From Haliclystus octoradiatus (lineage: Eukaryota > Cnidaria > Staurozoa > Stauromedusae > Haliclystidae), in assembly GCA_916610825.1 (NCBI GenBank), contig OU744446.1:34635833-34699832 (forward strand): DNA of 64,000 bases, read 5' to 3'. This document shows, in pieces, positions 6,804 to 62,386 of the stretch. The notes beneath the pieces are model-generated. The model ran no database searches, was not told where the DNA came from, and worked only from the letters and a program-made list of their open reading frames with translations. How positions within the stretch are numbered: the stretch's first letter is position 1; each line of letters starts with the position of its first letter. The position numbers and the translations under genes are program-made.

Positions 6804-7029
6804 CTGAAAAATATTAACAATAATTTACAATTTACTGAATACTGAATAGATTGCCTGATGATCACCTTGGCATGAAACTTTGAGTAGCAAACATGACTGT
6901 CTGATTTTTGACTTCATATTTTATATATCATTCAAAATTCTGCCATTCAAAAGCATTGAGTCCTATGTTCCTTCAGTAAGACAACTTACAACATATAACT
7001 TACATTTTATAAATTTTATCAATATTAGA

Positions 7030-17969: not shown

Positions 17970-17980
17970 CACTTATATGG

Positions 17981-18497: not shown

Positions 18498-19472
18498 GAG
18501 CCATCTATTTACAAAAGTTGGGACACGCTTTCATGTGCCGCTACCGTCTCCTATTGGACAGATGCCATTCACGTGATGTTTTGGACGCCACTTTCGTACT
18601 TTCGGCACCAGGGTTCTTGTTCTTTTGGCACCAGGTTTCCTGTTTTAAGCGAAGCGCGCGGAAAAATACAACTTTTATCAGTGAAAACAAACATAGGCTA
18701 TTAAATTATTAATTGCTGTGTTAATAGGCGCAATATCAATCGAAATAAAAGTATTGTTTACTATTCCAACTGGGGACAAGAATTAAAAAAAAGTTGTCTT
18801 TGACTGCAAAGAATAAGCGTAAGAGATACTCTACAAACTCCTTGTCCATTTAGCAATTCCAATAGCATTGATCTGATTTACTCTTGAGCAACATGCTGAT
18901 GAGATCGATAACATAGTATATGTCGATACGGAAAACCATTAAAAAGATATCCGAAGAAGAAGAATGACTCGATAATTTGATTTTCAACAATATTCTTAAA
19001 ACATCACAAAGAATACCAAAAACGATAAAATGTAAACTATAATTTTAACTATATTAAACTATAAGAACGACGTGACCGATAGCGCCAACGTCTAACTACG
19101 AAATTTACTCAACCAATAACTTACTGCCACTCCTTAATGGTAATATCACGTGACATAATTAATACTAGTGATCAAGAACAGTTCCGGATTCGGGTTACAA
19201 TCGGATTATCGGATTATATTTCGATTATGATTCAAGATAATTAATACAAGAATAATTTATGATTAAGATTAGCAACAAAATAGTAAGAATAATAAAAATA
19301 CAAAATCCCTTTTTAACAGTATACATTGAAGTAAATTTGTATTCTAATTTTGAGAGTCCAACAAATAAATATGGAGAAAGACAACTCATAAATGGTTATA
19401 TAATACTCTTGTTAAACAATCGCAAGCATTTCACAGAGTTCCAAAATGGCTTAAAAAAACACAACATTCTCG
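18498..19472. other. No recognisable gene or element
   Basis: AT-rich sequence between the family F cluster and the Penelope-like fragment. Short open frames (for example 18518-18712 and 19259-19495) have no recognised similarity and look like chance. Confidence 0.4.
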
Positions 19473-19612
19473 TGAAAAGCGTGAAACTTGAGTAACAGTA
19501 AAGAATGTGTATTCTTTGACTCTTTCGCCATATATTATTATTATTTACCGCTCTGTCAAATGAAGACATAGAGCCCTATATTATCTGCTATTAGATAAAC
19601 ATAAATTTTATT

Positions 19613-19651
<39 letters not shown>

Positions 19652-19826
19652 ACAAATGACAGCGATAAAAGAGACATAATTTAGCAACGTTTCGTTATCT
19701 TCTTAATAACATCGTCAGGCGAGTGAGTGATATTGAAAATTTCATAAAATATATAGAGAAAACTAATTAACATAATTCTAATAGAGCGTTAAATTCACAG
19801 ACATCGATACGGAAGACTGTCAGTGA

Positions 19827-20123
19827 TCAAACAAAGAGCCGGGATTTAACAGAGTCTAATTGCGTGTTGAGTGTAGGCTTGATCTGCCGAATCGCAAGCA
19901 TTTCATGAATGAGGCAATCAAAACGGTTCTTACATTTTTTAATAACTCGAAAGTTTTGATGACAATCGCGGACGGTAATACCATGTGAATGGCGAAGATG
20001 TGATCCAATGGCCGATCCAGTATGTCCGTCAATGCGTTGATGTAAGTGTTGGCAAGTGAAGCCAACATAACTTGCATCACACAAGTCACATTGAAAACAA
20101 TAAACAACGCATTGACGAGACAA
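19827..20123 (-). pseudogene. Penelope-like GIY-YIG endonuclease fragment
   Basis: About 98 residues: VVYCFQCDLCDASYVGFTC, then HLHQRIDGHTGSAIGSHL and a C-terminal LAIRQIKPTLNTQ. The Cys pair before YVG, the RI..H and the closing IKP.LN motif are those of the GIY-YIG endonuclease at the C-terminus of Penelope-like element proteins, which nicks target DNA. The frame runs upstream into a TAA microsatellite, so the RT half has been lost or displaced. Confidence 0.85.
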
Positions 20124-20125
20124 GA

Positions 20126-20206
<81 letters not shown>

Positions 20207-20235
20207 TATGGCGAAAGAGTCAAAGAATACACATT

Positions 20236-20290
20236 GTTTACTGTTACTCAAGTTTCACGCTTTTCACAGCGATCTTCAGACAGATTTTTT
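20236..20290 (-). ncRNA. Hammerhead-ribozyme-like motif 1
   Basis: Minus strand: CTGAAGA core (20279-20273), helix II CGCT/AGCG, GAAAC, mini helix III ACT/AGT with a 2-nt loop, cleavage site GTA, and helix I CTGT/ACAG. All core positions of the hammerhead consensus CUGANGA...GAAA...UH are present. It overlaps the right end of the Penelope-like fragment. The left inverted end (19473) has the GAAAC half but lacks CTGANGA. Confidence 0.6.
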
Positions 20291-20610
20291 ACTCAATGAA
20301 AAATATACATGATATCTACGTTCTATGGTCAACTCTCCGTAATGCTGCTTTCTATTGTTTAATTAATACAATGCTATTGTTATTGCTATTGTTAATACAA
20401 GTGGTGGAAAAATGTGATGGTTTCCTTTATTCTCAGTAAATGATTATTTATTATGTTTTTGATTTATTAAAATTGGACAGGTAATATTTATTTTCGTGAC
20501 GACATTTAGATATTAATTCAGTTTTTTTGTTTATTATTGGTTCTTCTGCGCATATAATATGATATTTTTCTAAGAGGCATAAATGGCATTTTTTCGAGAT
20601 GTTGTCGAGG

Positions 20611-21374
<764 letters not shown>

Positions 21375-37896: not shown

Positions 37897-38020
37897 ATGA
37901 TTGAATCAGACAAGTAAGACGAAAAAACAGATGAAAAGACAATTTAGGAAAAAGCGAGATTCTCAAAAAAATCTCTGCTCAAGGAATGCATCAATGCCTT
38001 GAATAAGCGTGTGATAATTC

Positions 38021-42933: not shown

Positions 42934-44935
42934 CTAGGATAAATGATATAAAGACATTCATTAGAAAAATTCGAATGATGTTTCAAAGAATTGACCACTA
43001 ACGTCCATATCCAGACAACTTAATTAAACATGGACAATCAAGGATCAACACATCTTTAATTCTAGGTAATTCATTCGAAACAAAATAATTAAACAACTAA
43101 AGTAATTGTAATTTGCAAGATTTGATACTTTTATTTGTTTTTTGTTTTGTGTATTTAATTTAAGTTTAAATAATTTATTCACTGATCAAGACACTCAAAA
43201 TGTACTTTTCGTATAACAAAAAAGCAAAAGCAATAATTCTACTATGCCGTATGTTCTGATGTGTTTATTATGACATCACTTGCTGCTTAGAATGAGGGCT
43301 GAGCGGAAGAGAAATCAAAAAATGTATGCGTTAAAATAGAGGCGTAACTACAAGTTACTTTCAAGCAACTTCTACTTATAATTTGTAACTTTATTCGAAA
43401 TAAGCTTCTAGTTATAGCTAGAAACTATTTAATTTGAATGCTAGTAGCGATTTCTTCCTGAACACTAATTAATTTTCGACTTTTCGTCTGAGGTTTTTGA
43501 GTGTCTGCATGATCCCCCACTACCACCTTTCCCTTTTGGTGTATAATAGTTGGAAATTCAAATCGTTCGAACAATCCACCATGCTTAGATTCCTTTTGTT
43601 TCGATAAGCATCGAATGCGCGTGAGGTGAATTTTTTATTTCTGAAATGAAGGAGACAGGAAAAAATTGCAATACGATTGATCGATTTGTAGCGCAACTTG
43701 ATTGCTTACTTGAGAATAGAGTGATGTAATTGTGGATGCACTGGTTTCACAGTTGTCGTTTTTGCAAATTATATCGAAAGTCACACCATCGGCTAGAGTA
43801 ACTCAAATAAGGTTTCGAGTTGCAAGCAAATGCATGCTTATATTGAGATATGAATCGTGCAGCTTAACTGTTCAAAATAAATTTACGAAGGAATTTATGC
43901 TGGTCTAGATAACCTGATCGAAGCCTTAATTTGATTGAGAACATATTCTATTTCGTTTTTTTGCTGTCGAAAGAAGCACAAAAGTTTTGAAGTGAAAAGT
44001 AGAACTCAGATGATTTTATTTACTAAAAATTAGGTACTATTTAGTTGATCCCAACGCACGTGGAAGTTGTAGCCATACCCTCCCAAAATACCCAGAAACA
44101 TGATTAACCCGAGTGTCATAAAGTAGTAAGGTACAGCATTTTCGGGGGATTGTCTGAATAAAGTTCTTATCAGAAAATATTTTATAACATTGCAATTTAA
44201 TTTCCATAACGTGAGTTTGTTTACAAATTGATAACTTTCTTTTCCAAATCTTTTTCCGATAATAATTTCTGGTTATTCTGGTTATATAGTTTCCAAATAA
44301 AGATCATCCAAATAAACTGAAACTGTAGATGTTTTTCAAAATATATGTAAAGAAAGAAATTATTCAATTAACATTTTATATATTTATGTTCCGTGTGGCA
44401 TCATGCCCTTCATGTTATCATATAACTAACCTCTTGAGGCACAACGAAATTCTGTCTCCAAAAAACTATTGTATAATGCTGCTGGGAACATATAACGCAT
44501 GCACGGGTTAGCAGGATGGAATACAATTTAGGGCAAAAGATTTCTGCCCACCACGGATTGCGCATCTGATAAATATGACGCATATATCATTGAATGCTTT
44601 TAAACAGCCTCTAGACGCTGTAAATTCAAAACGATTTTGTAAATTGTAAATAGGCTGAATGTCAGTGTATATATTATTCAATTGATAAATACCTTTGTAT
44701 GCCTTCAAATATATGTCTTGCAAATGAATAAATAAAATAATTAATTATATAAGTTGAGACGTCATTTTTTAACGCGTTTTGCAATGTTACCAAAGCCTCA
44801 TAAAGCTCTGAATACACGACAAAAATGTAGGCGATCACAGAATAATTAAAGGAATACATTATTGTACGCAGTTAAGGTAGAAAATATTTCATTATTTATC
44901 GCAATAAGTCAACCTGCATCATCAACTGAAAAACT

Positions 44936-45353
44936 CATGAGCCGCCGCTGTAATAGTCTGCGTTACAGACCGCGATTCATTCACAAAAGAATAGGGTCTG
45001 TGTGTTTTGCACAGTTCTCTGTCCAGCCACTCTACGTAAACGTAGAGCGGAAGTTTCTGATAGATGCATGGTAAATCTATTGTTCTTAGATAATAAATTC
45101 ATCACCTCTGTTCGATCAATTAATTGTCATAGCTACGAAGCCTAAAATAGAACTTATTGCAATCATGTCAACTAAAGTGAACAAAGTAATGTGAGAATCC
45201 CGGTGAGAATCATCTTAATCTTGCATAATTATGTGACATCAATCTTATTCTGATGCGAGGCCCGGACAGAGAAACCGAGCAATTCACACAGACCCTATTC
45301 TTTCGTGAATGAATCGTGGTCTGTAACGCAGGCTACCGCTGTAAGGGAACTCA
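44936..45353. mobile_element. Foldback element with arms of about 95 bp
   Basis: Left arm 44936-45027 and right arm 45253-45353 are inverse: TCATTCACAAAAGAATAGGG with CCCTATTCTTTCGTGAATGA, GTCTGCGTTACAGACC with GGTCTGTAACGCAG, and TCTCTGTCC with GGACAGAGA. Interior about 225 bp, no coding. It lies in TSP1 intron 3. Confidence 0.75.
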
Positions 45354-46455
45354 TTATTTATGACCACTGGGTTGGGGCCGAATAGCTCCAATTTTTCAAA
45401 TACAATTCCTTTACCGAACCAAAAAGAGCTTCAAAAATATGTTTACCCAAGCCTAACTATAAAGGTGCTTTGCTATAAAATTAAATATCTAGGTGCTTTG
45501 TTTGAAACTCCTTGCACAAGGATATTGGAAGTTCTTGTTTCAAGCTCACTGCCAAAATTGCTAGTTATGATAAAAATAAGAGCTAAAAATGCATCACTTC
45601 CTTTCTCTTTGTATTTCGATTTGAATTGGTTATTTCATTGCAACATATTTTTGTTTTACCCAACCTTTGTTGACAATAATTTTTTATTTATCCAACCACA
45701 CTCACTTTGGCCCTGACTCAGGTCATAACTAATGAGCGATCCCTAATTCAAGACAACTGAAACGAGTCTCTCGCTTTTGTTATCACTTTTTTTATGACTA
45801 CAGTGTATCGGCTGTTTTAGAAATCCGTAAATTTCTTGTAATCTACGGGGTCTGTAGCTTGGATACCGGGATTTGACATTACTATGGTGTTAACCAATCA
45901 GATTGCAATAATTAATCGTAGCGAACCCATTCTACATGTTCTAAGGTGCTACGTTAAGGACCAATCATTCATATTGTGATCTACAATGGCGATTGTAATT
46001 AGGCATTTTCTTATAGCAGTATAAATTTTCGAGATCGTAAAAATATCACTTTGATTTGACTAGTAAAAGTTGCAAAGAAAATAAAATGAATCTTTCAAAG
46101 TCAACATATTTGGCAAATGTAATAGTAGAAAAGAAATATAAAAGAAAATGGAATCTGCTGCAGTTCCACTTGTTCTGTTATACACCAGCTTACCAGTTAT
46201 GTAACCAATATAATATATCAAAGCCACATGGTGTGAGAAATGACCCTCGTCTATTTAGCCAAGATATTGCACAAAGTAGTATCTATATTCATGAAAGAAT
46301 CGTTGATGTGTAATACGTATATAAAATGATTTCCAGATTAATTTTCTAAATGGTATATATATACATATGAAGACAAGCTTTTGGATGTTTCAATAGATTA
46401 GACCGTATCAACATTTGAGTATAATACTTGACAATACGTTAAACACCATATTTAC
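45354..46455. other. Intronic sequence without recognisable features
   Basis: TSP1 intron 3. The frames 45360-45716 and 46056-46313 have no recognised similarity and are probably chance. Confidence 0.3.
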
Positions 46456-46623
46456 CTGGACACAGTTCAGAATTGCAAGCTGCAGTTATCGTAGTTGATC
46501 CAGTGCACGTTGCTCCACCATATTGAGGTCCTGGATTGTTACATGTTCTTGTACCAACTTTTGTCCCGCCACCACAAGTGACACTGCATGAACCATACGT
46601 ATAAGCACCCCAACCACCATTAA
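46456..46623 (-). CDS. TSP1 gene exon 3: repeat 2
   Basis: Too interrupted by flanking stops to appear as a long frame, but the exon is clean. Acceptor TATTCTAG, donor GTAAAT, phase 1 to 1. Reads GGWGAYTYGSCSVTCGGGTK then RTCNNPGPQYGGATCTG and ACNSELCPG. Six Cys in the standard TSP1 pattern, CSVTCG intact. Confidence 0.85.
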
Positions 46624-47365
46624 CTAGAATATAATGCGGTATTAGATTTATTCCTTTTTAGTTATGGCAGCACTAAAAACTAGTTATTCCACGTAATAAT
46701 TCTTTTGAAAACAAACTGCGCGATTACAAATTTGTAAACATCTTAATTTAAATATTCATTCACAATTAAATTCATAATTTGACTTATTTATTCAAAAAAG
46801 CTGTTAGTTTGTGATCTGCTTTTATAGATCGGTGCAGATAATGCGCTGTATTCTGTAATATATGGTAATAAGAAAAGGCTTCAAGCGTGATTGTGGACGA
46901 GAAAATTGGATATATTGTGATGAAGCATGAAATATCTCTTGGGCATCTGTCAGTTTTTGAGAAGTTCCTGAAGCTTATGTTATTGAAATAGTATACGTAT
47001 ACATGATTTACTAAGATAATTTATTTAAAAATCGGTTCAGAAGTTAATAAGCAATTTGTTCTGGATCTCGCTTCAACGTTTTTATACTCAAAAGTAAATC
47101 ATAGACGTATATAGACTGCTGGTTTCATTGACATTTAAAGGAAGCATGTAGCGGAATAGGAATCCATAATGGCTGACGAGAGGACCAAACCGTCGCGTGA
47201 AAGACGCAAAATCTCAAGTCTATGTCTATTTCTATGTTAACTATGACTATGAGAAGATAGCTAAAGTAAGTCCTTCGCGTCAGTCGTCTTTGTTCCACAG
47301 GCTTCATATTCTCGACAGCTGTGGGTCTTTGAAGTAAACAGATAAATTCGAATTTTGATTTATAC

Positions 47366-47545
47366 CTGGTGGACAGTGATAAAAAGAATGACATGATTGT
47401 GTTATCGTTTTGAAGCATTGGTATTTCTGTGTGTAGATAGCATGAACTGGGTGAAAATGGCAGAGAACATTGCAATGACGTGTTCCACCACTACCACATG
47501 TGACGTCACAGCTACTCCATCCAGTCCACTCATAGCATTTGGGTA
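47366..47545 (-). CDS. TSP1 gene exon 2: repeat 1
   Basis: Acceptor TTTTCAG, donor GTATAA, phase 1 to 1. Reads YEWTGWSSCDVTCGSGGTRH, the W..WS.C..TCG..G core, then an unusual Cys- and His-rich second half (CNVLCHFHPVHA ... CHSFYHCPPG) longer than the other repeats and without the usual RTC.NP. About 60 residues. Confidence 0.85.
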
Positions 47546-49204
47546 CTGAAAATCAAATCAATTAATCATGAGTTATATATCCTGTCAATCCTAAAGCTGA
47601 CGCCTTAAGTACCTCTACATACTTGCGCGGCAATAACGATTGATCGAGGGCATAGCAATGTACACCGTACAAGTGTATATTGTGTAACTCGTTGAAAGTG
47701 GCTTGATATTTTATTAATTTGTCTGTATGTGAAAAGGTACACAAGCACTTTCCAATGCTTTTAATTGACGTAAATTGTATTGTCACAACTCACAAGTCAT
47801 TATAGAGCATCTTAATAGTAGCTCTGATGATGGACTATATAGACTGAGATAACTTCCCTTCATTGCTATTTTGTATACCTTTTCATGCTATTCGAGATCG
47901 TCAGAGCATTCATAACAAACTGCAATGTATAGAGTTGGGGGAGAACCATCACTTAAAAACGATTTTTGAACCGTTCACTGTCTCAAGTGTATGAATTATC
48001 TTAATTCACAACTCTGATTTACATAGGTATAAATACCGGAATTGTTTTTAATCGTGTTTGAATGGCTTTTTGCATCCAAATAATTGCTGACAAGATGAAA
48101 TGTAATAGTTTTTATGAATATTATTGGGATTTAATAGCAGATATTGGTCGAGCAACTATTTTACTTCTACAAATTATTATTGGGTACCAATTTATAGAAA
48201 CGCTATATGTCGTCCAAAACTGTTATCAAAGACCTGTTATTCATATAGCTTTTTGAGCTTAATGCTAGTTCTATATGAAATATTTTTGTAAGTCATTGAT
48301 GGTAGAACAGCTTCAGCTTTTTGATATTTATGGTCAAACGAATTCTTAAGTACATTTCTTAGAAATAATCATATATAGTCCCATTTCAACATTATTAATT
48401 TGTAATAAATTAGCAGGAGAGTGATTTATAACAGAATCAAATTGCAATAGCCCATAGAATAGCAATTGTAACATGAACATTCCACCTATCTTACTGAGTG
48501 GCTCTTTTATTATTCCTAAGCTCTGCGTACAAACATTGTAGTGACCATGTACTTGGTTGAGCATTTGAAATCCCCTAAATGGCTTCTTCTAAGCACTCTT
48601 CTTGAATATAAATTATAACATACTCGATCATAAAATCACACTTTTAGCAATACTAACACATAATGAACTATTTCTCAACTGGTCATTATCTCTTAATTTG
48701 GAAAACAAAACAATAAACAAATTTCATTAGTCATGCATGACGAATATCAGAATTTTCCATTACAAGTCCAATCAACAACAATAAATAATTTCTTACTATT
48801 ACAAAGTTTACAGAAGCTGCTGCTTTTCATTTTTAATTTTGAGTTATGTCATTTTCTCATTTTCATTTTATTTTTGATGCCAAATGTGATATAACGTGAG
48901 ACAGTTAAAACATGACCGATACCAACTGTGGCTCCACTGGATATGATCTCTTAATTAAGATTTACTTAATTACATATGAAAGGCCTGGGTACTAATGTAT
49001 ACTAAATTATGCTAAATCTATCACGTGATAACGTGTGACGATATACGACAATTTTATAATTTACATATGCAGATGATAACTAACCAGCGATAAATAGGAA
49101 ATAGTAACAATACAATTTATTTCTAGCATCAAAAGCCCTTGTTCTGTTAAACAATAACTGAAGATTTGTAAATCGATATAGGTGGAACTGTATGTTTTTC
49201 AGTA
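47546..49204. other. Part of TSP1 intron 1, nothing recognised
   Basis: AT-rich with short chance frames only. Confidence 0.3.
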
Positions 49205-49262
49205 TTTAGTTTATTTGTCTGATGATTGCGTAAGCATGAAACTATTAGTAACAATTATGAAT
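49205..49262 (+). ncRNA. Hammerhead-ribozyme-like motif 2
   Basis: CTGATGA at 49219, helix II TGC/GCA around GTAA, GAAAC, mini helix III ACT/AGT around ATT, cleavage after GTA at 49250, helix I TTGT/ACAA. It is followed by TGTAGTCTTTGACTCC, the same trailer as at the Penelope-like fragment at 19.5 kb. Confidence 0.6.
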
Positions 49263-49700
49263 GTGTAGTCTTTGACTCCTTTTATTATATTTAGCTCTGT
49301 CAATGATATCGAGCACTATTTTTTGCTATTAGATAATATCTAATATTATATGAATAAAATTTAAATGAACATTTAAATTTTAAAATATTGGCAAGCGATT
49401 ACTGTTCAATGCTTGTAAAGAGCAAAGCGGTAAATAATAATAATAATAGAGTCAAGGAAGACACACCATTTTTTATTACAATGGTTACAATTGTTAATAA
49501 CGGAATCTATTGTTATTATGCTTCCGTAAGTTATCATGTTTTTGCTTCTTTGTAATTATAGATAGGTAAAATTTATTCTCATGGCGGCATTTTTAAATTA
49601 ATTCTGATTTTTTATTCATTAGTGTTATTTTAGAACAAATGATGTGTCATTCTTGACTCTATTATTATTATTATTATTATTATTACTATTATATATATAT
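49263..49700. mobile_element. Penelope-like terminal remnants with TAA tracts
   Basis: TTTGACTCCTTTTATTATAT, TAGCTCTGTCAATGA, GCTATTAGATAATATC and two TAA/TTA tracts (near 49435 and 49660) are in the same order as at 19500-19650. No coding part remains. Confidence 0.55.
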
Positions 49701-49720
49701 AGATAGATATATAAATAGTA

Positions 49721-52700
49721 CTAGCAATGAGTGTGGTCCATAATGGACCTTCTATGATAAAAACTTTCAGATCACCTATAATTAAACAATTGACTAAGCT
49801 GACTATCGCTGTAAAATACGGAGTATGAACTCTGTAGTAGAACATCATGAGACACAATACGCATTGAAACGATGTAGCATTAATCAATACATCTTAATCA
49901 TTCCTTTAATAAAAATTTAATTTATTTCACATCAATTGAGTCGATTGAAATGTATAATTTAACGTAGCTATATCTACATAGAAAAACTTTATTTTATGTG
50001 TTGAAAGGAAACCAGAACACATTAATTATTATAAATTACAAGTACTCAGTCAAATTTCGAAATCTGAAACTATCCATAAAAAATCACTTCAAATCCGATC
50101 CGATCCGAAGACCTAAAATATTAACCCGAATCTGACCGGATACGATCGGATCGCGTTCGGTTCGAATTCATAAATCTTTATTGCAATATATACAGCAACA
50201 ATGTGGTGTTCACAAAATAACGCCGTCAAGGTGTGGCCGGTCAAACTCGTGGCATTGCATGCAATATATTCAATATTAAATTGATTTAGCTTCGACAAGA
50301 CACATGGTCCACTAATTTCTGTTATTAACATGATCAAACGATATCTTTTGTTAATTAACAATGATTTACTGCTTCATATTAAAAAAAAATCAGAAAAATC
50401 GTTGATAAAAATTGCCGAATGGCGGATTTGGACTGACGACCCTGATATTGTAATACCAGGGCATTAACCAATCGGCCACTACCTTACTTTTTGTTATGGG
50501 TGCTTTAACTGAAGTGATCAACAAAATTACTGCTTCGACAACGTATTATTGAACAAGGCCGACCCACGCGCGTGTATTGAAAATCAAATTATATATATAA
50601 TCTGAAAATATTATGATATGATAGTAAATGAGCCTATATATTTTTGACCTTTGCAATCTCAGCAAGCAGGCCTGTGATTTTCATGGCAGTCTATCAAAAT
50701 ATCAAGATTTCGTTGAAAATAAAATTTTGTAAGTAAAAAAAAGAAGTGAAAAATTGGCCTGATAGTGCTTCTTGTTATCAAATTTTCCAGAATAATAGCA
50801 TCAACATTCTTTTAAAAGGAAATGAAGTTCTATAATAAATCGCTATACTAATTTGATATTGATATCATTTTACATCTTGTTGTCAATATTTCTACGCGCT
50901 ATTTATAATACATTACAGATGTCGAATGAAAGAAAAGACGATTATGAATAAATTAATTATTTTGATAGAAAAATGAAAACAACTCATTTTGCCAGATTCG
51001 TGATATGCATATTTATTCAGAATTTATTGAAACGGACGCGATGGTTTATAGAGTGGAAATGTTTAGTGCAGCTTCAAAGATATAAAATATCATAGCTGAT
51101 GGCAGTATTTAAATGCTCATGTTATGATGTCTGATGAAAAGGATTTACTTATATAGAAAATGAATCTACTTTACCTTGCATTTGATCGCGATATGAAATG
51201 ATCATTTTTGTCAGAATTATTTCGAATAAAAAGCAATTTATATTATATTCTTATCGGGCTCACATTCTCCTTCGATAAAATATGGTTGTTAACTTATTAT
51301 TGATTGGTGTATTAACTCAGAGAACCCGCTATTATGTATTTAAATGTTGTTCGGAGATTATGCCGCTCGTACAGTTTTTATTTGGATCTCATTTGGAAAA
51401 TGGTAAGTAGTATTTTAATAAATATTGTTTGCTATGATCGATTATTTCATGCAACCTTTTCACTTTTTATTTTTGTAACACAAGGTTTGTTACACTCATC
51501 CAAACTGTATTAACTATTTAAAAATGTTTTTGAATTATGTTTTTGTACTTTTAAATTCAAAGCAAAATTTTTGAACGCTGAAAATATTATAATTATTAAT
51601 TATTATTTATCACAAATCATACGCTCAATTCAATTTAACTTTGTTAAATTTGATATACCTGAAATTAACTTTATTAAATGTTGATCAAAGATAATAACAA
51701 GACATCGCTATTTTTATTCTCGAAACTGTAGTAACATACTGTGTCTTATTCGTATAGCAAGTCAACACAATGAAATTTTAATTTTAATCGATGCCTATAA
51801 TTCCTTCGTTAATTATGGAAGCAAAATCTGAAAATAAAAGCCTTGCTGCTCAAAACCAAATGATTCGTTTTTTTATATCAAATAATAAATTATAGAAATA
51901 CTTTTGTGCAATGCCTTGATTAATTCTAAACTCTATAATTTTAGACTGTAGACAGATAATCTCTTCGAACTTTGAATATTTTTCGAATTAGTCGAACGCC
52001 AACGTCAATTTGAAAATTCTTGCAAATTAATTTGTTTTTAAGCCCCGCGATAGATTATTCATTTCAAAACAGATTGTTTGCTCAGTGTTCTCACAAATTA
52101 TATATCAAAATAGCCTTTTTAAAAGTGAAATGTTTTATATCTCCATTTTGAGAAAAGTAATGAAGGGCATTTTGTTTCATTAATAAATTAAATTAAGACC
52201 TCAAGTCTCTATATGTATTGCTGATATCAACACTACATGAAATAGGTCTACGTTTCTTTGATTTCAAAACATATTTTGTCTGGCCTAGTTATACTGGTAA
52301 TTCAATGTAATTCAGTATTTCGTATTGTTTTAATTATCATAAAACCGATTCAGTTTCAAGTTTCACTTGTTCAAACAATTTACACGCAGCTTTTAAATTC
52401 AAAGCAAAATATTTTTGTTCTGGAGAATTCAATTTGAAGTCGATTTGGCTGCCCGCTAGATTATCGACTTATGAAACTTTTCAAAATCTCTGAATTTTTT
52501 AATGCAACGATATCAAATAAAATATCAGATGAAGTATATTATTTTAAAACAACGTCATAGACCCATACTTTTCATACAACAAATTTGTTACTGTACACGG
52601 TTATCTCGACACAAATGTTTGCATAATTTCCCGACAACGGATTATCCGTATTATTTCGCCAGTAAGACGTACATAAGTCGCGGACAGACACAGAAATATA

Positions 52701-52730
52701 GTGATATATAAACAGACAGTATTATGTATA
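49721..52730. repeat. 3.0-kb tandem duplication, copy 1
   Basis: Direct copy of 52731-55762; the start CTAGCAATGAGTGTGGTCCA recurs 3010 bp later. Contains a tRNA-like segment (50414-50482, minus), a purine/pyrimidine CCGATCCGATCCGAAGACC block, repeat D near its right end, and a plus-strand ATG followed at once by GTAAGTAG (51400-51410). No long open frame. Confidence 0.9.
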
Positions 52731-55700
52731 CTAGCTATGAATGTGGTCCATTATGGACCTTCTATGATAAAACTTTCAGATGACTTATAATTAAATAATT
52801 GACTAAGCTGACTATCGCTGTATAATACGGAGTCTGAACTCTGGAGTAGAACATGAGACACAATACGCATTGAAACGATGTAGCATTAATCGATACAACT
52901 TAATCATTCCTTTAATAAAAATTTAATTTATTTCACATCAATTTAGTCGATTGAAATGTATAATTTAACGTAGCTATATCTGCATAGAAAAACTTTATTT
53001 TATGTGCTGAAAGGAGGCCAGAACACATTAATTATTATAAATTACAAATACTCAGTCAAATTTCGACATCTGAAACTATCTATAAAAAATCACTTCAAAT
53101 CCGATCCGATCCGAAGACCTAAAATATTAACCCGAATCTGACCCGATACGATCGGATTGCGTTCGGTTCGGATTCATAGATCTTTATGCAATATATACAA
53201 CACTATGTGGTGTTCACAAAATAACGCCGTCAAAGTGTGGCCAGTGAAACTCGTGGCATTGCATGCGATACATTCAATATTAAATTAATTTAGCTTCAAC
53301 AAGACACATGGTCCACTGATTTCTGTTATTAACATGATCAAACGATATCTTTTGTTAATTAAAAATGATTCACTGCTTCATATTAAAAAAAAATAAGAAA
53401 AATCGTTGATAAAAGGTTGCCGAATGGCGGTTTTGAACTGACGACCCTGAAATTATTATACCAGAGCATTAACCGATTAGCCATTGCGTTACTTACTGAT
53501 ACCAGTGCTTTGACTGACATTATCAACAAACCTACAGCTTCGACAACGTATTATTGAACAAGGCCGACCCACGCGCGTGTATTGAATTTCAAATTATATA
53601 TATAATCAGAAAATATTATGATATTATACTATATGAGCCTATATATTTTTGATCTTTGCAATTTCAGCAAGTACACCTGTGATTTTCATGGCAGTCTATC
53701 AAAATACTAAGAGTTCGTTGAAAATAAAATTTTATAAGTAAAAAAAAGGTCTGAAAAATTGGTCTGATAGTGGTTCTTGCTATCAAATTTTCCAGAATAA
53801 TAGCATCAACATTCTTTTAAAAGGAAATAAAATTCTATAATAAATCGCTATACTAATTCGATATTGATATTATGTTACATCTTGTTGTCAATATTTCTAC
53901 GCGCTATTTATAATACATTACAGATGTCGAATGAAAGGAAAGACGATTATGAATAAATTAATTATTTTGATAGAAAAACGAAAACAACTCATTTTGCCAG
54001 ATTCGTGATATGCATATTTATTCAGAATTTTTTGAAACGGACGCGATGGTTTATAGAGTTGAAGTGTTTAGTGCAGCTTCAAAGATATAAAATACCACAG
54101 CCAATGGTAATATTTAAATGCTCATGTTATGATGTCTGACGAAAAGGATAATTTACTATGTAGAAAATGAATCTACTTTACCGTGCATTTGATCACGATA
54201 TGAAATCATCATTTTTGTCAGAATTATTTCGAATAAAAGACGTCAATCTTTATTTTATTCTTATCGGGCGTACATTCTCCTTCGATAAAATATGGTTGTT
54301 AACTTATTATTGATTGGTGTATTAACTCAGAGAACCCGCTATTATGTATTTAAATGTTGTTCGGAGATTATGCCGCTCGTATAGTTTTTATTTGGATCTC
54401 ATTTGGAAAATGGTAAGTAGTATTTTAATAAATATTGTTTGCTATGATCGATTATTTCATGCAACCTTTTCACTTTTTATTTTTGTAACACAAGGTTTGT
54501 TACACTCATCCAAACTGTATTAACTATTTAAAAATGTTTTTGAATTATGTTTTTGTGCTTTTAAATTCAAAGCAAAATTTTTGAACGCTGAAAATATTAT
54601 AATTATTATTATTTATCACAAATCATACGCTCAATTCAATTTAACTTTGTTAAATTTGATATACCTGAAATTAACTTTATTAAATGTTGATCAACGATAA
54701 TAACAAGACACCGCTATTTTTATTCTCGAAACTGTAGTAACATATTGTATCTTATTCTTATAGCAAGTCAACAAAATGAATTTTTAATTTTAATCGATGC
54801 TTACAATTCCTTCGTTAATTATGGAAGCAAAATCTGAAAATAAAAGCCTGCCTGCTCAAAACCAAATGATTCATGTTTTTATATTAAATAATAAATTATA
54901 GAAATACTTTTGTGCAATGCCTTGATTGATTCTAAACTCTGTAATTTTAGACTGTAGACAGATAATCTATTCGAACTTTGAATATTTTTCGAATTAGTCG
55001 AACGCCAACGTCATTTTGAAAATTCTTGCAAGTTAATTTGTTTTTATGCCCCGCGATAGATTGTTCATTTCAAAACAGATTGTTTGCTCAGTGTTCTCAC
55101 AAATTATATATCAAAATAGCCTTTTTAAAAGTGAAATGTTTTATATCTCGATTTTGAGAAAAGTAATGAACGGCATTTTGTTTCATTAATAAATTAAATT
55201 AAGACCTAAAGTCTCTTTAATTTCATAGCGTTTGTGCCGCGCTATATGTATTGCTGATATCAACACTACATGAAATAGGTCTACGTTCTTTGATTTCAAA
55301 ACATATTTTGTTTGGCCTATTTATACTGGTAATTCAATGTAATTCAGTATTTCGTATGGTTTTAATTATTATAAAACTGATACAGTTTCAAGTTTCACTT
55401 GTTCAAACAATTTACACGCAGCTTTTAAATTGAGAGCAAAATATTTTTGTTCTGGAGATTTCAATTTGAATTCGATTTGGCTGCCCGCTAGATTATCGAC
55501 CTATGAAATTTTTCAATATCTCTGAATTTTTTAATACAATGATATCAAATAAAATATCAGATGAAGTATATTATTTTACAACAACGTCATAGACCCATAC
55601 TTTTCATACAACAACTTTGTTACTGTACACGGTTATCTCGATACAAATGTTTGCATAATTTTCCGACAACGGATTATCCGTATTATTTCGCCAGTAAGAC

Positions 55701-55762
55701 GTACATAAGTCGCGGACAGACACAGAAATATAGTGATATATAAACAGACAGTATTATGTATA
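52731..55762. repeat. 3.0-kb tandem duplication, copy 2
   Basis: Parallels copy 1 along its whole length with scattered substitutions and short indels, including about 30 extra bases near 55215-55245. The tRNA-like part is at 53417-53488 and the ATG-GTAAGTAG site at 54410. Confidence 0.9.
53417..53488 (-). ncRNA. tRNA-like relic in the 3-kb unit
   Basis: Minus strand: TGGCTAATCGGTTAATGC resembles box A and D arm, and AGTTCAAAACC resembles box B. T and acceptor stems do not pair well. The equivalent at 50414-50482 has a poorer box B (AGTCCAAATCC). Confidence 0.3.
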
Positions 55763-55828
55763 TAAGTGATAAGTGATAGTTGTCCACACTTGTGTAGGTA
55801 CATTGCTCAATGATAAATTTCAGAGCTT

Positions 55829-55999
55829 TAATAGATAAATAAATAAAATGAGTCAAAAAAGAGACATATATACCTGTTATCGCTACTTCGAGTTTCACGC
55901 CATACGGCCATCTTGCCTGATGATCGCCGTATGGCGTGAAACTCGGAGTAGCGAGAACAGGTATGTCTCTTTTTTGACTCATTTTATTTATTTATCTAT
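55829..55999. repeat. 171-bp palindrome carrying a hammerhead-like motif
   Basis: AAATAAATAAAATGAGTCAA ... GTTTCACGCCATACGG at the left is mirrored by CCGTATGGCGTGAAAC ... TTGACTCATTTTATTTATTT at the right, arms about 75 bp around a short loop containing CTGATGA. The TCGAGTTTCACGC arms are Penelope-like terminal sequence. Confidence 0.85.
55900..55966 (+). ncRNA. Hammerhead-ribozyme-like motif 3
   Basis: CTGATGA at 55917, helix II CGCC/GGCG around GTAT, GAAAC, mini helix III ACT/AGT around CGG, cleavage after GTA at 55950, helix I CTTGC/GCGAG (five pairs, one wobble), with further distal pairing CATAC/GTATG. This is the best-paired of the five. Confidence 0.7.
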
Positions 56000-56256
56000 A
56001 TATATATATATTAGATATTATCTAATAGCAAAAAATAGTGCCGATGTCATTTTACAGAGCGTAAATAATAATAATGGTGTCAAAGACTATGCATTCATTT
56101 TCTGTAACTTGAATTTTCTCTCTTTATGCCATCATCAGACAGATACATTAAACGAAATAGTATTATATATACACAGCTATAGATATAAAATAAGAAACGA
56201 GACGTTTTCTGTGTTACTCAGAGTTTCACGCTGTAGCGCTCCTCAGACGGTTTTAT
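56000..56256 (-). mobile_element. Penelope-like terminal remnant, reversed
   Basis: GATATTATCTAATAGC, ACAGAGCGTAAATAATAATA and GTGTCAAAGACTATGCATTC are the inverse of the blocks at 49263-49450 and 19500-19600. It ends in hammerhead-like motif 4. Confidence 0.6.
56203..56256 (-). ncRNA. Hammerhead-ribozyme-like motif 4
   Basis: Minus strand: CTGAGGA (56246-56240), helix II CGC/GCG, GAAAC, mini helix III ACT/AGT around CTG, cleavage after GTA at 56215. Helix I next to the core is weak (two pairs). Confidence 0.5.
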
Positions 56257-56767
56257 TCATATAAAAAACATTTCTAAATTCAACAAATATATATACATGA
56301 TTAAAGTTTAGACGCCTATTGATTAAATTGTTGTTCTATTGTTTTTTGCTGATATGCTAGCTTTCGTACGAAATTATCATATGCTATTGTTCTATTTATG
56401 TTTTATCTTCCTTCAAATTTTTCATATAAAATTTGTTTTCGTGCCTGCATTCCGAAACTAACTCAGATCTTCTATTTAATAAGTTCTTGCTTCTATAAAA
56501 TGTTATAATTTTTTTTTCCTATAAACGGAGATTGCATTTTTTCAAGACATTGTTGTATGGCACTGCAGTCGATAGTATTGACGATTTGACGAAGAATGAT
56601 TTTCTGTTGCCTTTTAGTAACCAGATGTGTTTAGATAAATCAGTGCCATTTTCATCGTTTCTGTTGAGAAATTACGACTTATGTTTTCGTAAAACGATCT
56701 TTGAAAGAGTTATATGAATTATCTAAACGCATTTGGTCACTAAAAGACAACGGAAAATCATTCTTCG

Positions 56768-56838
56768 TCAATAGATCTATACTTGACTGATGATCGCCGT
56801 ATATGGCGTGAAACTCGGAGTCGTGAGAACAGTATATA
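56768..56838 (+). ncRNA. Hammerhead-ribozyme-like motif 5
   Basis: CTGATGA at 56787, helix II CGCC/GGCG, GAAAC, mini helix III ACT/AGT around CGG, cleavage site GTC at 56820-56822 region. Helix I has a mismatch beside the core, then pairs (TATAC/GTATA distally). Confidence 0.5.
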
Positions 56839-57217
56839 TATTTTTTAGCCTCATATTATTCATTAATCTATTAAATCTCTGATATTTGTCATTGCGCACT
56901 ATACCTACACAAGAGTGGACAAATTTATTTATTTTTGATCTATATATGATTCACTCATTGCAAGAACGAAAATGTTGATATCCGTTGGACCCCATTTTCA
57001 AAATCAGATCATGATAAAATTTTAGCACAACTTATTTTAAAAGCAGTCTGTAAAAGAATACCGATTGGCCTTATAACATTTCAAACGTTCATTATATTTG
57101 TACCAATCAAATGCACATACCTGGTTTTACGAATAGATGACGTTTCAATAAATGCAAAAATGATATAAAAGATATAATGTAGAAGATAGTGTAATTCTTA
57201 CCAGTTTTCCATCTTAC

Positions 57218-57334: not shown

Positions 57335-57726
57335 TTTCTATATAGATAATTGTTATCGATAATAATATAGTTAGATCAACTTTACTAATATTCAATTTCT
57401 ATCTAATTTGAGAATTTGTCAGCCATGAACTGTGTTGAAGGCTTCAGACTATCAAACTATATTGGTTAATGAAAAAATCATGAATCTGCAGTATTCTGTC
57501 AATCGTGTCAGCAACTCTATAGGCTACCAAAGAAATTATAGGGTTATTGTATGAAACAACGATACCGTCCTGCTTGAATTACTAACACGACAATGAACAG
57601 ACATTTTAATCAATAATTAGATGAAACTGAAGCACGAATATGATATGAATAGCTTTCTTTAAAAAAGTTATTATTGTGTAATACAATTCCATAAACGAAT
57701 AAATATTCAACCATGCACATGCAGTG
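57335..57726. repeat. Repeat G, degenerate partial copy beside TSP1 exon 1
   Basis: Weak but ordered similarity to the 1.2-kb unit: TTGAGAATTTGTCAGCCATG, AATGAAACAACG/TGAAACAACGATACCG and CGAATAAATATTCAACC. It begins within a few bases upstream of the TSP1 start codon. Confidence 0.5.
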
Positions 57727-58948
57727 ATGCATCAGATAGATACATTAAGTAGAACCTCAGCCCCACAATGGTATGTTGATTAACGTGAGTTTTATAAAAC
57801 TTACTTTGTTACCAACGTATGACGTAATTCTCAAAATCAAAAAAGCAAGATAAACGTCTTTTTTCTCTTGATTACTAATTACTTGATACATATAATACTT
57901 GATAATGGCAAGCGCTGGATTAAAACATTAAGCAACGGATTGACGTGGTAGCAGTGATAGGTTACAAAGCGAAAGCTAGCAATGAAGGCCTCACAATGTC
58001 TAAAAGTATCTAAACTTTCTTTTCAAAACAATTCTGATATCTATCCTTATTTTAAAACATGTCGGGTAAAATCCTTGCATAGATAATCTGTGGATACGTT
58101 ATTCCTAAAGGGAGTTGCATAGTAGAAACAAAGTCAGGTTAAAAAAATTTACAAAAAGTTGTTTAATGATTACAACTGAAATGGCTTAAAACTTAATCAA
58201 TTGTTTCTCCGGTACACTCTATTATTTTCTGCCTTTCTCTCAGTTTTGGAGACACATCACATTATATCAAATTGCAATGCTTTATATAATAAACTTTCTA
58301 TTTGCATCATAAACCATCGAAAATATAAAATCAGCCCGCTCCTTTGATATGATTGCCTTACATATTTCACTAGTTTATTATGCATTATGTATTTGGATTA
58401 CTTTCAACTCTGTTTCGTTGGCGATTTTTAAATATGGGGTTAAGTAAATAGACAAGGATACCTTGTTATTTTGCGAAATTTGAATTGGTTGCTATACTAA
58501 TTGTTCGAGGTCGAATAAACTTCATCTATTCGTTAAGATTTTCTAAAAGAGTTTAAATCTGATAAAGGTTATATATTTGATAAATGATAATTTAGTGATC
58601 AAGAGTTTACAAATACTCCATTTCTAACTAATTTGAGAAATTTTTCAGCCATTAACAACTGTGATGGTCGTTCCAATCTATGAAAATATGTTTGTGGATA
58701 AAATGACCGCAGATCATCAGTTTTCATTCACTCGTGTCCGAAACTCTAAAGGCAATTGAGGACTTTGATAAGGGAATTGAATGAAACAATGACGCGGTCT
58801 TTCTTGCATTGCTAGCACGGCAAGGAAAAGACATCTTGTATGAAATAAATCGATAAAATTGAAACACGAATATGTATAGCGTTCCTCAAAATAAGTTTAA
58901 TAGTGTTTACAAACTATATCATTATTGAATAAATATTCAAGCATACAC
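57727..58948 (+). repeat. Repeat G, 1.2-kb tandem unit 1
   Basis: Starts GCATCAGATAGATACATTAA and ends before the next GCATCAGATAGATATATTAA at 58949. Includes TGACGTGGTAGCAGTGATAG and the block that is found reversed at 28.4-28.9 kb. No coding. Confidence 0.8.
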
Positions 58949-59007
58949 AGTATTGCATCAGATAGATATATTAATTAGCATATCAGCTCCATGATTGTAT
59001 CTAAATG

Positions 59008-59711
59008 TTGACTTGCTCCAAGTCTCGCTTATTTTTATGACGACTTTGATATGCTGATAAGTGAGACTTGTGTCCTTTGCACATTCTGTTGTTTTCCAAG
59101 ACATGAGAAACCCATCAAACCATGCAAGATGACGTAAAACAGTTTGAAGTTGTCCAGAGGGTTGTCTTCGTTCCACATTCGTTTTTGGAAACATGACGTG
59201 CAATCTAAACACGACTTAAATGATTTAAATTTGGCTTCACGATCGTTAGTTAACTCTTTACAGCTGTCGAAAATACTATAACTAGAAAATATGTCGGGAA
59301 TATGTGGTTGTTCTTGATTCAGCAAACTTATTCTGGCAAGTTGTTGCTCTTTTTAAAATGCTGCAAACTTTCTCAGTTTTGAATGATCGTTGTGGTGGCG
59401 AGGAATGCCCTAGATTTATTCCTGTAGGCAGTGTATTAGTAAGTTTGATCAAAAATCAAGCAATTATTAAAAGTAAATTGTAAACTCTTGGAAGGTAGAT
59501 GTTTTTATCCATAACTTGACGTCATGTGTACCCCCGATAATTTCATCTTTCTAAGACTTCTGAAAACTAATGAAAATTTATGAAAACAACGAGATCAGAC
59601 AAGCCGGCGTTGGGCAGAATCCTGCCCAACATTTTACAAAGGACACAAGTCCCGCTTACCAACTATCAAATCTCAGCATATCAAAGTAAGCGGGACTTGG
59701 AGCCAGTCAAA
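59008..59711. mobile_element. 704-bp inverted-repeat DNA transposon with 8-bp duplication
   Basis: Ends TTGACTTGCTCCAAGTC and GACTTGGAGCCAGTCAAA are inverse and the similarity continues inward for about 75 bp (TTTGATATGCTGA, GGACACAAGTCCCGCTTA). TCTAAATG flanks both sides (59000-59007 and 59712-59719). The parallel unit at 62387 reads straight through a single TCTAAATG, the empty site. Two minus-strand frames (59325-59035 and 59212-58958) have no recognised family. An 8-bp duplication fits hAT or P-type elements. Confidence 0.85.
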
Positions 59712-60959
59712 TCTAAATGTAACCTTGGTTATATAAAACTTATTTGTTATCAATGTATGACGAAATTCTAAAAGTCAATGAAGCATAATAAACATCTTTT
59801 TTTGTTTTGATTACTAATTACTTGATACACAATGCTACGCGGAATTTATAGCAATAAACAACGGATTGACGTGGTAGCAGTGATGGATTACAAAAGGAAA
59901 GGTAGCAATGAAGGACTCACAATGATAAGGGTATCTAAACTTTTTACTTTTAAAAACGATTTTGATATATATCCTTATTTTACGACGTAGTCGGGTAAAA
60001 TCCTTGCATAGATAATCAGCAGATATGTGATTCCTAGAGGGAGTTGCATAGTAGAAACGCTCCCAGGTTTAAGATATTTGCAAAAAGTTATTATATGTAC
60101 AACTGAAATGGTTTACAACTTGATTAAATGGTTGTTTATTCAGGTACCCTCTATATTTTCTGCCTTTCTCTCAATTTTGGAGACACATCACATTATATCA
60201 AATTGCAATGCATTTATAAAATAAACTTTCTATTTGCATCATAAACCATAGAAAATCTAAAATCAACCAAACTCGCTCCTTTGATATGATAGCCTTACAT
60301 ATTTCAACCCTGGATTTCTTTCAACCCTGTTTCGTTGGCGATTTTCAAATATGAAAGCTAAAGGGTCGAACAAGACCGTCAACCTTTGTATGGAATTTTT
60401 TGAAATCTGATCTAGTAGCTATTTTATTTATGTCATCATATTTCAGTGAGTTTGATGATATTTGAGCAGTGAATTCTGAAACGCAACTTCTAAAATCTAA
60501 AATGGTAACAATTTTTGAAATACACAAGCAAAGCAATATGATTTGAATATTCAGATGATGACAATCAGGGTTTCAAATACGACTTATATAGGTCTTAAAA
60601 ATCATCATTGCATGCGAACAAGTCGGCAATTACAAAAACATCAAAGTTCGAAAACAAACGAACGACTGGGCAACGGTCACTGTCAGAAAATCAGTACAGT
60701 AATTAAATTCAATGGGAATCAATTTTGTAGAAAGCCATAATATCCAAACACCCAGAAATCACACATGATGTTTATTTTGTTTCGATCGAATTTCAGTAAT
60801 GTCAGTATAATAAAATACAGAAATATATGCCGTTGATTTGATCATTGATGTTGTCAAAATGAAGCTAGATTCGGTATGATTCTTCTTTGCAAGAAATATC
60901 ACATTTATAGATTTGTAAACAATTAGTAGCAGTAGTAGTAGTAGTATAGAAAGTCACAT

Positions 60960-61570
60960 TATAGGAATGTGCCGTCCCTCTTACGCCTTACATATCTGCT
61001 ACACAAAGAACGCGACAAAACACGGTCAGACATAGCTGACAAAGAAACTTTTAAATAACACAATTCACGATACAAAACATTATGAAAAGATACTACTCTC
61101 CCATAGCCCCATCGAAGCATCTCCTTCGTTTGCCAATGAAGGATGTCATGCAGCGGTTGAGGGGCGTACGTCTTTCGATGTGACCTAAATAGACATCTGA
61201 CGTTGGTGAGCAATAGCAGAGGCAGAAGGAGAAAGTTTCTAAGTTTAGCAGTAGACAGTAAGTTGGGCCAATGTACTCCTAAAGCATGCCGAAGCATGGC
61301 GTCATAGCTGAGTCAAGTCGGGTCAATAATGAGGTTGATAGAGCCCACGTTTCAGATGCATATAATAGAACAGGTTCTATTGTGTGTCTGAACAGTTTTA
61401 AGTTAACGTCAGTGTTGACATCGGACGCCCAGAATTTATTCAGACCTCTAATGGCTGCCCAAGCCTGGCCTCTACGTTGAGTTAAATCATCTGAAGAAGA
61501 TGGAAGTACAGAACCTAGGTACTTGAACGAATCTACACGTTCTATGTCACCATTTGATGTAGCAAGGTGT
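60960..61570 (-). pseudogene. LINE 4: C-terminal RT fragment
   Basis: The minus strand reads VDSFKYLGSVL, RRGQAWAAIRGLNKFW, LKLFRHTIEPVLLYASETWA and, after a frame change near 61297, MLRHALGVHWPN. This is the region after the catalytic core in RTE/CR1-type RTs (FKYLGS, then ETWAL). No YADD motif is included. Confidence 0.75.
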
Positions 61571-62386
61571 GCCTGTTACAACCAAAAAACAGTATCAAAT
61601 GTGCACATTTATCTACATTATGCTTTCTTTCAACAAAATTATTTATTCCATGTTACATCTTTGGTGAGCGGTCTTGGCAAATCACAAAACACTTCTTTGT
61701 AGTTTTACAGCCATTAAAGCACTTCTCGTGATATATTAAAGTTACAAGATTTCATCGCTATGAAAACTCAAAACCGAGTTGGTGATGTAACAGCTGGTGT
61801 TGGAAAATGAGGTTTTTTAGAAAATTATGTTTTTCAAAACAATTATCGCCGGTCAATAATGCGCCTTTAAGTAAATAAACAAGGAAACCTTGTTATTTTG
61901 TGAAATTTGAATTGGTTGATATACTAATTGTTCAAGGTCGATTAAGCTTCAACTCTCTCTTCGTTAAGATGTTCTAAAAGAATTTAAATCTGATAAGGGT
62001 TATATAATTGATAAATGATAATGTAGTGATGAAGACTTTACAAATACTCCATTTCTAACTAATTTGAAAATTTTTTCAGCCATGAACAACTGTGATAGTC
62101 GTTCCAATCTATGAAGATATGTTTGTGGATAAAATGACCGCAGATCATCAGTTTTCATTCACTCATGTCCGAATCTCTAAAGGCAATTGAGGACTTTGAT
62201 AAGGGAATTGAATGAAACAATGACGTGGTCTTTCTTGCATTGCTAGAACGGCAAGGAAAAGACATCTTGTATGAAATAAATCGATAAAATTGAAACATGA
62301 ATATGTATAGCGTTCCTCAAAATAAGTTTAATAGTGTTTACAAACTATATCATTATTGAATAAATATTCAAGCATACACAGTATTG

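What the first reader, a model, noticed from the sequence alone, without database searches (positions are those of the whole stretch)
49205..56838. Five hammerhead-ribozyme-like motifs linked to Penelope-like sequence
Seen: motifs at 20236-20290(-), 49205-49262(+), 55900-55966(+), 56203-56256(-) and 56768-56838(+). Each has CTGANGA, a 3-4 bp helix II, GAAAC, a three-pair helix III (ACT/AGT) with a 2-3 nt loop, and a UH cleavage site. Three have helix I of 4-5 pairs. All show an odd non-standard pair at the base of helix II (T opposite T in four, G-T in one), so this looks like a family trait. Known: Penelope-like elements and small circular retrozymes carry type I hammerheads with tiny helix III. 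Inference: these are such ribozymes, some probably active, in an intron of the TSP1 gene.
Basis: partly seen in the sequence, partly recalled or inferred. Interest (0 to 1): 0.75.

Follow-up and report, generated by a model that had tools for sequence, protein, structure and literature searches.

The report
Hammerhead ribozymes in Penelope retrotransposon remnants
This stretch of an animal genome holds several copies of a tiny self-cutting RNA motif inside the broken remains of Penelope-type jumping genes, a partnership that is already known, here followed by a small RNA hairpin close to where the copies end.

Summary
The motifs are real. A sixth copy lies at 6847-6898(+), and three more are truncated or decayed. 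Best reading: relics of Penelope-like elements (PLEs). Two motifs lie 149 and 171 nt downstream of the same endonuclease-like C-terminal coding remnant. A GIY-YIG fragment sits at 19827-20126(-), just below Pfam's cut-off. Motif size and spacing match the biochemically studied Anolis PLE (PMC11167929). All copies are fragments; no PLE reverse transcriptase was seen in the ORFs scanned.

Further details: a covarying 7-bp stem-loop 44-80 nt past the cut, and same-subfamily copies that stop being alike beyond about +105, near where PLE reverse transcription should start.

The best-formed motif (55917+) lies in an 82-nt inverted repeat that should bury it in long transcripts. The TSP1-intron claim is not shown: the cluster lies 5' of every TSP1 exon found. 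No Rfam hammerhead model hits. PLE hammerheads are published, and a U·U at the base of helix II is reported in axolotl. New member of a known kind.

The parts
49205..49262 (+). Hammerhead motif (C3 at 49219, cut 3' of 49250, GTA); helix I 4 bp, helix II 3 bp plus T.T
49251..49355 (+). Tail of the 49219+ copy: TTTGACTC, AT-rich stretch, stem-loop at 49294-49314; like the 56130- tail up to about +105
49402..49660 (-). Decayed endonuclease-like remnant (49589-) followed by a tail with the stem-loop (49433-49402) but no recognisable hammerhead
55909..55962 (+). Hammerhead motif (C3 at 55917, cut 3' of 55950, GTA); helix I 6 bp, helix II 4 bp plus T.T
55831..56003 (.). Inverted repeat, 82-nt arms 55831-55912 and 55922-56003, 78% complementary without gaps, 9 nt between; head-to-head junction predicted to bury the 55917+ motif
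55763..55922 (-). Truncated minus-strand copy: 3' half of a hammerhead, then tail with stem-loop and AC-rich end
55983..56146 (-). Decayed hammerhead (56146-56094) with its tail and stem-loop
56203..56254 (-). Hammerhead motif (C3 at 56246, cut 3' of 56215, GTA); helix I 2 bp, helix II 4 bp plus G.T
56396..56700 (-). Endonuclease-like C-terminal coding remnant with two in-frame stops, its end 149 nt before the 56246- motif
   Evidence: no Pfam match
56715..56786 (+). Second, inverted piece of the same coding remnant, running straight into the 56787+ motif
56779..56834 (+). Hammerhead motif (C3 at 56787, cut 3' of 56822, GTC); pair 1.1:2.1 not formed, helix II 5 bp plus T.T
56823..56926 (+). 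Tail of the 56787+ copy: stem-loop (56876-56897) and AC-rich CTACACAAGAGTGG at +83 to +96
20233..20287 (-). Hammerhead motif (C3 at 20279, cut 3' of 20245, GTA); helix I 4 bp, helix II 4 bp plus T.T; runs into an (ATT)n tract
20451..20600 (-). Endonuclease-like C-terminal coding remnant, its end 171 nt before the 20279- motif
   Evidence: no Pfam match
19827..20126 (-). GIY-YIG endonuclease fragment, 5'-truncated, in another copy beyond the (ATT)n tract
   Evidence: E 1.9e-4, 22.1 bits, cut-off 22.6
19689..19718 (-). CTGACGA...GAAAC sequence about 108 nt after the GIY-YIG stop; at best a decayed hammerhead
   Evidence: E 8.9
19466..19600 (+). 3' half of a hammerhead with tail and stem-loop (19550-19574)
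6847..6990 (+). Sixth full-length motif (6847-6898, helix II broken at two pairs) and tail with stem-loop (6937-6961)

Best explanation
The motifs are minimal type I hammerheads from the end (pseudo-LTR) of Penelope-like retrotransposons. Fragments of these elements have inserted into and beside one another, often head to head, in AT-rich DNA of an animal genome. In an intact element the order would be: endonuclease, stop, about 150-170 nt, hammerhead, then about 105 nt of tail with a stem-loop. Most likely, transcripts of tandem units were cut by the hammerhead just 3' of GUA, separating units and leaving a 5'-hydroxyl on the downstream one; the element's enzyme bound the tail and started reverse transcription near its 3' side. 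Shown here: the motifs, covariation in helices I and II, the order of parts in two copies, the stem-loop, and the loss of likeness beyond about +105 in same-subfamily pairs. Inferred: cleavage, protein binding, the start of reverse transcription, and that most copies are dead. The PLE identity rests on a sub-threshold GIY-YIG hit, a protein type recalled from memory, and geometry taken from a paper.
For: Exact descriptor and shuffles. Two-sided changes in 4 of 11 pairs; 60 of 66 cells paired against 24-54% when slid. A model from 4 copies finds the 2 held-out ones at E 1.8e-8 and 2.2e-4, rough E-values. Endonuclease-like remnants ending 149 and 171 nt upstream of two motifs. GIY-YIG fragment. 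A9-to-cut distance of 26 nt in 3 of 6 motifs and 28, 29 and 30 in the others, against 26 for the Anolis PLE. Stem-loop: 45 of 48 cells paired, 0 of 500 shuffles reach the covariation score, and RNAalifold predicts the same 7 pairs. Likeness of same-subfamily tails is lost beyond about +105; the Anolis start site is about +85 to +92 by my subtraction. Palindromic head-to-head junction, as described for PLEs (PMC3846280).
Against: No Rfam hammerhead hit. No Pfam match for the upstream coding remnants. No PLE reverse transcriptase among the 8 ORFs first scanned with Pfam; other ORFs were not scanned for it. The hammerhead fold is never the minimum-energy fold: penalties of 4.5-51 kcal/mol in 24 of 24 foldings. 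Tails of the two subfamilies, and the 56246- tail, are not alike in sequence (49219+ against 56787+ and against 56246- show no likeness above shuffles at the 0 of 200 level). The stem-loop is missing from 3 of the 9 hammerhead copies (55917+, 20279-, 56246-). The number of two-sided pairs is unremarkable against shuffles (59 of 500, 93 of 500).
Confidence: 0.82

Rival explanations
1. Non-autonomous metazoan retrozymes: small tandem repeats transcribed and circularised through their hammerheads and mobilised in trans by a PLE.
For: Retrozymes carry type I hammerheads and coexist with PLEs in animal genomes (PMC7229834). Several motifs here, such as 55917+ and 49219+, have no endonuclease remnant recognised directly upstream on the same strand.
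Against: The only 150-450 base tandem array, 24722-25352, has no hammerhead-model match. Two motifs follow endonuclease-like coding remnants. The helix III here is the minimal form linked to PLEs.
Confidence: 0.08
2. Hammerheads of another retroelement or repeat: the upstream coding remnant is not from a PLE, and the GIY-YIG fragment beside it is unrelated.
For: Pfam does not recognise the remnant; I call it PLE-like from memory. The GIY-YIG fragment belongs to a different copy and protein type.
Against: Motif geometry and tail end agree with the Anolis PLE, and palindromic head-to-head junctions are a PLE habit.
Confidence: 0.08
3. Chance resemblance to hammerheads in AT-rich repeats.
For: Rfam models do not match. 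The related exact pattern has one match in the prokaryote collection, inside a 912-aa open frame read on the opposite strand, with two helix I pairs broken.
Against: At most 3 hits in 300 shuffles against 5; two-sided changes in helices I and II; that pattern has 0 matches in viral contigs and 1 in genome contigs.
Confidence: 0.02

Closest known systems
PAc, Poseidon of Anolis carolinensis (Frangieh et al. 2024, PMC11167929; parts 1-2 of the text and passages read)
   Same: Hammerhead at the end of a PLE, cut 26 nt after A9-equivalent (26 in 3 of 6 motifs here), element end about 85-105 nt past the cut in a stem-loop region, palindrome-prone tandem or partial copies, ATT-rich surroundings.
   Different: PAc has a full RT-EN ORF starting inside the hammerhead and a protein-assisted ribozyme; here only fragments, no shown ORF start, and a second stem-loop upstream of the end that I did not see described there.
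Minimal type I hammerheads of PLEs and Terminons (reviews PMC7761336 and PMC6155905, passages; primary papers not held)
   Same: Minimal type I form with very short helix III, in pseudo-LTRs of PLEs.
   Different: Reviews describe most as lacking helix III nucleotides; here all six full motifs have a 3-bp helix III.
HHR_Amex2 of axolotl retrozymes (PMC7229834, results part 1 and passages)
   Same: Type I hammerhead with a U.U mismatch at the base of helix II.
   Different: Canonical-size motif in a tandem retrozyme with loop-loop contacts; not a PLE fragment.
Penelope elements of the rotifer Adineta vaga (PMC3846280, passages)
   Same: Head-to-head inverted pseudo-LTRs with palindromic junctions and an optional short 3' tail.
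   Different: The text does not use the word hammerhead; those elements are near full length.

Membership tests
Hammerhead ribozyme, type I | Conserved core CUGANGA / GAAA with three helices and a UH cleavage site, open at helix I | tested here: met
   5 of 5 reported motifs by descriptor, but helix I is 0-2 contiguous pairs in two of them
Hammerhead ribozyme, type I | Match to a curated covariance model | tested here: not met
   No Rfam hammerhead hit; whether those models find published PLE hammerheads was not tested
Hammerhead ribozyme, type I | Self-cleavage | not testable with these tools
   Needs a bench test
Penelope-like element | GIY-YIG endonuclease at the end of the ORF | tested here: inconclusive
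   One fragment at E 1.9e-4 just below the cut-off; the remnants next to the hammerheads have no Pfam match
Penelope-like element | Telomerase-related reverse transcriptase | tested here: inconclusive
   Not among the 8 ORFs scanned (two RVT_1 hits, one with a LINE-type endonuclease); other ORFs not scanned
Penelope-like element | Tandem or inverted partial copies (pseudo-LTRs) with palindromic junctions | tested here: met
   Inverted repeats at 55831-56003 and 56574-56783; copies on both strands
Penelope-like element | 3' ends at a fixed point past the hammerhead | tested here: inconclusive
   Likeness lost beyond about +105 in 49219+/56130- and 56787+/55912-; 19477+ pairs are weak past +70, 20279- and 55917+ end earlier, 56246- has another tail
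Metazoan retrozyme | Hammerhead in 150-450 bp tandem repeats | tested here: not met
   Only array of that size, 24722-25352, has no hammerhead-model match
Metazoan retrozyme | Circular RNA of the repeat | not testable with these tools
   Needs RNA from the source animal

The most novel reading that the evidence does not exclude
PLE RNAs of this animal carry a two-part 3' module: a hammerhead, and 44-80 nt past its cut a covarying bulged stem-loop just before the point where copies end. The stem-loop is kept in shape although the tails of the two subfamilies are no longer alike in sequence. It would be the recognition and priming site of the PLE enzyme, coupled in spacing to the ribozyme, so that one RNA end carries both the cutting signal and the copying signal.
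Probability: 0.3. Interest if true: 0.5.

Novelty: new member of a known kind. Interest (0 to 1): 0.3.

Why it matters
The role of hammerheads in PLEs is called unknown in a review read in passages (PMC7761336). A set of copies with a shared stem-loop and shared end points allows the link between ribozyme cutting and the start of reverse transcription to be tested outside Anolis. Two truncated copies begin inside the hammerhead, about 23 nt (19472+) and 29 nt (55912-) 5' of the cut, in line with the Anolis finding that uncut RNA is the main template; the second of these is also a palindrome junction, so it is weaker evidence.

Tried and rejected
Rejected: retrozymes (no hammerhead-bearing tandem unit); chance; 'inside a TSP1 intron' as a shown fact; a microRNA gene at 55870-55967(-) (MIR161-like, 41.4 bits against a gathering score of 90, and two others), which the inverted repeat explains.

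Led nowhere: viral contigs pattern scan, 0 matches. Genome contigs pattern scan, 1 match, L001, covered on the opposite strand by a 912-aa open frame that looks like an RND-type transporter (recalled), with two helix I pairs broken. The search for related loci in viral contigs with the two endonuclease pieces, no relatives confirmed. PDB sequence search with the GIY-YIG piece: one hit, hydrazine dehydrogenase at E 0.35, taken as chance. Paper search 'Penelope-like, Naiad, GIY-YIG': 0 papers. The 2014 and two 2017 papers on PLE and Terminon hammerheads are not held, so I cannot say whether this stem-loop is in print.

Limits: the descriptor and the stem-loop register were chosen after looking at the sequence, and the stem-loop segments were cut out by me before RNAalifold saw them. 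The 6 motifs and 7 stem-loops are copies in one window, not independent species. Ends of copies were first read by eye; self-BLAST alignments run on 15-100 nt further in AT-rich DNA, and one search supports an end near +105 in two pairs only.
Full report
OBSERVATION. In 300 dinucleotide shuffles the mean is 0.26 and the maximum 3; with helix I of at least 3 pairs 3 hits remain, against mean 0.03 and maximum 1. The descriptor was written after seeing the motifs. Contiguous helix I is 4, 6, 0, 2 and 4 pairs in that order.

FURTHER COPIES. Self-comparison of the window and a covariance model built from six motifs add a sixth full-length motif at 6847-6898(+), whose helix II has two mismatched pairs, and three partial copies: 55922-55872(-), 19466-19506(+) and 56146-56094(-), at rough E-values of 3.3e-4, 1.3e-3 and 7.8e-3 (51 matches in all at E up to 10; the next, 7687-7731(-), has E 0.046 and I do not count it). 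The six training motifs match by construction. As a check, a model from four of the six finds the two held-out motifs, 55917+ and 56787+, at E 1.8e-8 and 2.2e-4. A core-like sequence at 19718-19689(-) scores E 8.9 and is at best decayed.

STRUCTURE SUPPORT. On the six motifs 60 of 66 cells form standard pairs (90.9%), against 24-54% when the 3' partners are slid; 3 of 500 shuffles reach this. Four of 11 pairs, two each in helices I and II, have changes on both sides; 59 of 500 shuffles reach that number, so it is not striking, while 7 of 500 reach the covariation score. Helix III never varies and gives no evidence.

AGAINST. Rfam gives no hammerhead match: whole window at gathering score, 48-58 kb at E up to 10, and short stretches around 49219, 55917 and 20279 (the other motifs were not given alone). 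I could not test whether its models detect published minimal PLE hammerheads. In 24 of 24 foldings (6 motifs, 4 lengths) the hammerhead fold lies above the minimum, by 4.5-51 kcal/mol; the energy model ignores the folded core and was not calibrated on active hammerheads.

SURROUNDINGS. Upstream of 20279- and 56246-, on the same strand, coding remnants end in a shared C-terminus (EL-(V/I)-S-x-CRHENK) with stop codons 171 and 149 nt before C3. A third remnant, near 49589(-), is followed by a tail without a recognisable hammerhead. From memory I take this protein type as the C-terminal part of a GIY-YIG endonuclease of PLE-type retroelements; Pfam gives no match. A piece of another copy at 19827-20126(-) matches GIY-YIG at E 1.9e-4, 0.5 bits below the cut-off. 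No PLE reverse transcriptase was seen among the 8 ORFs scanned; two had RVT_1, one of these with a LINE-type endonuclease. Other ORFs were not scanned.

TAIL. Past the cut several copies share TTTGACTC, an AT-rich stretch and a stem-loop of a 4-bp outer stem, a 2-nt bulge and a 3-bp inner stem. I found it in 7 tails: 6 of the 9 hammerhead copies, at +44 to +80, and the 49480- tail. It is missing from 55917+ and 20279-, which end earlier, and from 56246-, whose tail differs. 45 of 48 cells pair, and the innermost pair occurs as UA 3, AU 2 and CG 2; 0 of 500 shuffles reach the covariation score, but 93 of 500 reach the number of two-sided pairs, 2 of 7. RNAalifold gave the same 7 pairs on these segments. 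Windowed comparison: 49219+ and 56130- are alike to +105 and not beyond (z 7.8, 6.6, 6.4, then -0.3), as are 56787+ and 55912- (5.0, 4.3, 6.0, then 0.3). Pairs with 19477+ or 6855+ are weak past +70, and 49219+ against 56787+ shows no likeness in the tail, so a shared origin of the stem-loop across subfamilies is read by eye. In 56787+ an AC-rich CTACACAAGAGTGG lies at +83 to +96, and its counterpart in 55912- at +87 to +100 (read).

COMPARISON. In the Anolis PLE (PMC11167929, parts 1-2 and passages) the hammerhead cut is 26 bp after the start codon and reverse transcription starts in an AC-rich stem-loop 111-118 bp into the ORF, i.e. by my subtraction about +85 to +92. Here the distance from A9 to the cut is 26 nt in 3 of 6 motifs and 28, 29 and 30 in the others. 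That A9 corresponds to the Anolis start codon is my reading of the paper's wording. The Anolis endonuclease prefers ATT; here 20279- and 19477+ run into (ATT)n or (TAA)n tracts. In that paper the hammerhead cut only with protein, and its mutants did not reduce insertion. Two truncated copies here begin about 23 and 29 nt 5' of the cut, so the templates of those ends were not cut there.

PALINDROME. 55917+ is the best formed but lies in an inverted repeat with 82-nt arms. With 12 flanking bases the penalty is 4.5 kcal/mol; with 40 or more it is 45-51 and the mean pair probability is 0.00. Head-to-head palindromic junctions are described for PLEs (PMC3846280, passages). A second inverted repeat, 56574-56783, joins two copies of the coding remnant, one of which runs straight into 56787+ and may explain its poor helix I.

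HOST GENE. Five TSP1-like exons, minus strand, lie at 47307-47552, 46442-46657, 42668-42982, 40728-40985 and 36122-36403; four pass Pfam's TSP_1 cut-off, the first does not. The cluster at 49-57 kb is 5' of all of them, so intron or intergenic cannot be decided.

NOVELTY. PLE hammerheads are established (PMC7761336, PMC6155905, passages). A U.U at the base of helix II is reported for HHR_Amex2 (PMC7229834). The bulged stem-loop is the part I did not find described within searches; the primary PLE hammerhead papers were not held. The finding is a new member of a known kind.

Noticed in passing
49719-55762: Two tandem 3.0-kb units, 93% identical, that look like a non-autonomous Helitron on the minus strand: hairpin plus CTAG at the 3' end, and related copies at 9.2 and 30.2 kb that begin with TCTACT after A. 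Helitron marks are recalled, not tested against a library.
   Followed up: partly
20613-21374: A 254-copy (ATA)n tract, 99% perfect, inside the coding remnant upstream of the 20279- hammerhead.
   Followed up: no
24722-25352: Tandem array, period 260, 2.4 copies, of retrozyme-like size but without a hammerhead-model match.
   Followed up: partly
36122-47552: Minus-strand exons of a gene with repeated TSP1 domains, one domain per exon.
   Followed up: partly
8142-8702 and 14845-15243: Minus-strand exons with a caspase domain and a CARD, possibly one CARD-caspase gene.
   Followed up: no
32365-35103: LINE-type ORF of 912 aa with endonuclease and reverse transcriptase domains, open throughout.
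   Followed up: no
15670-18502: Nested direct and inverted repeats, 88-99% identical.
   Followed up: no
57343-62714: Several dispersed repeat copies, 71-95% identical, related to 28.4-29.0 kb.
   Followed up: no
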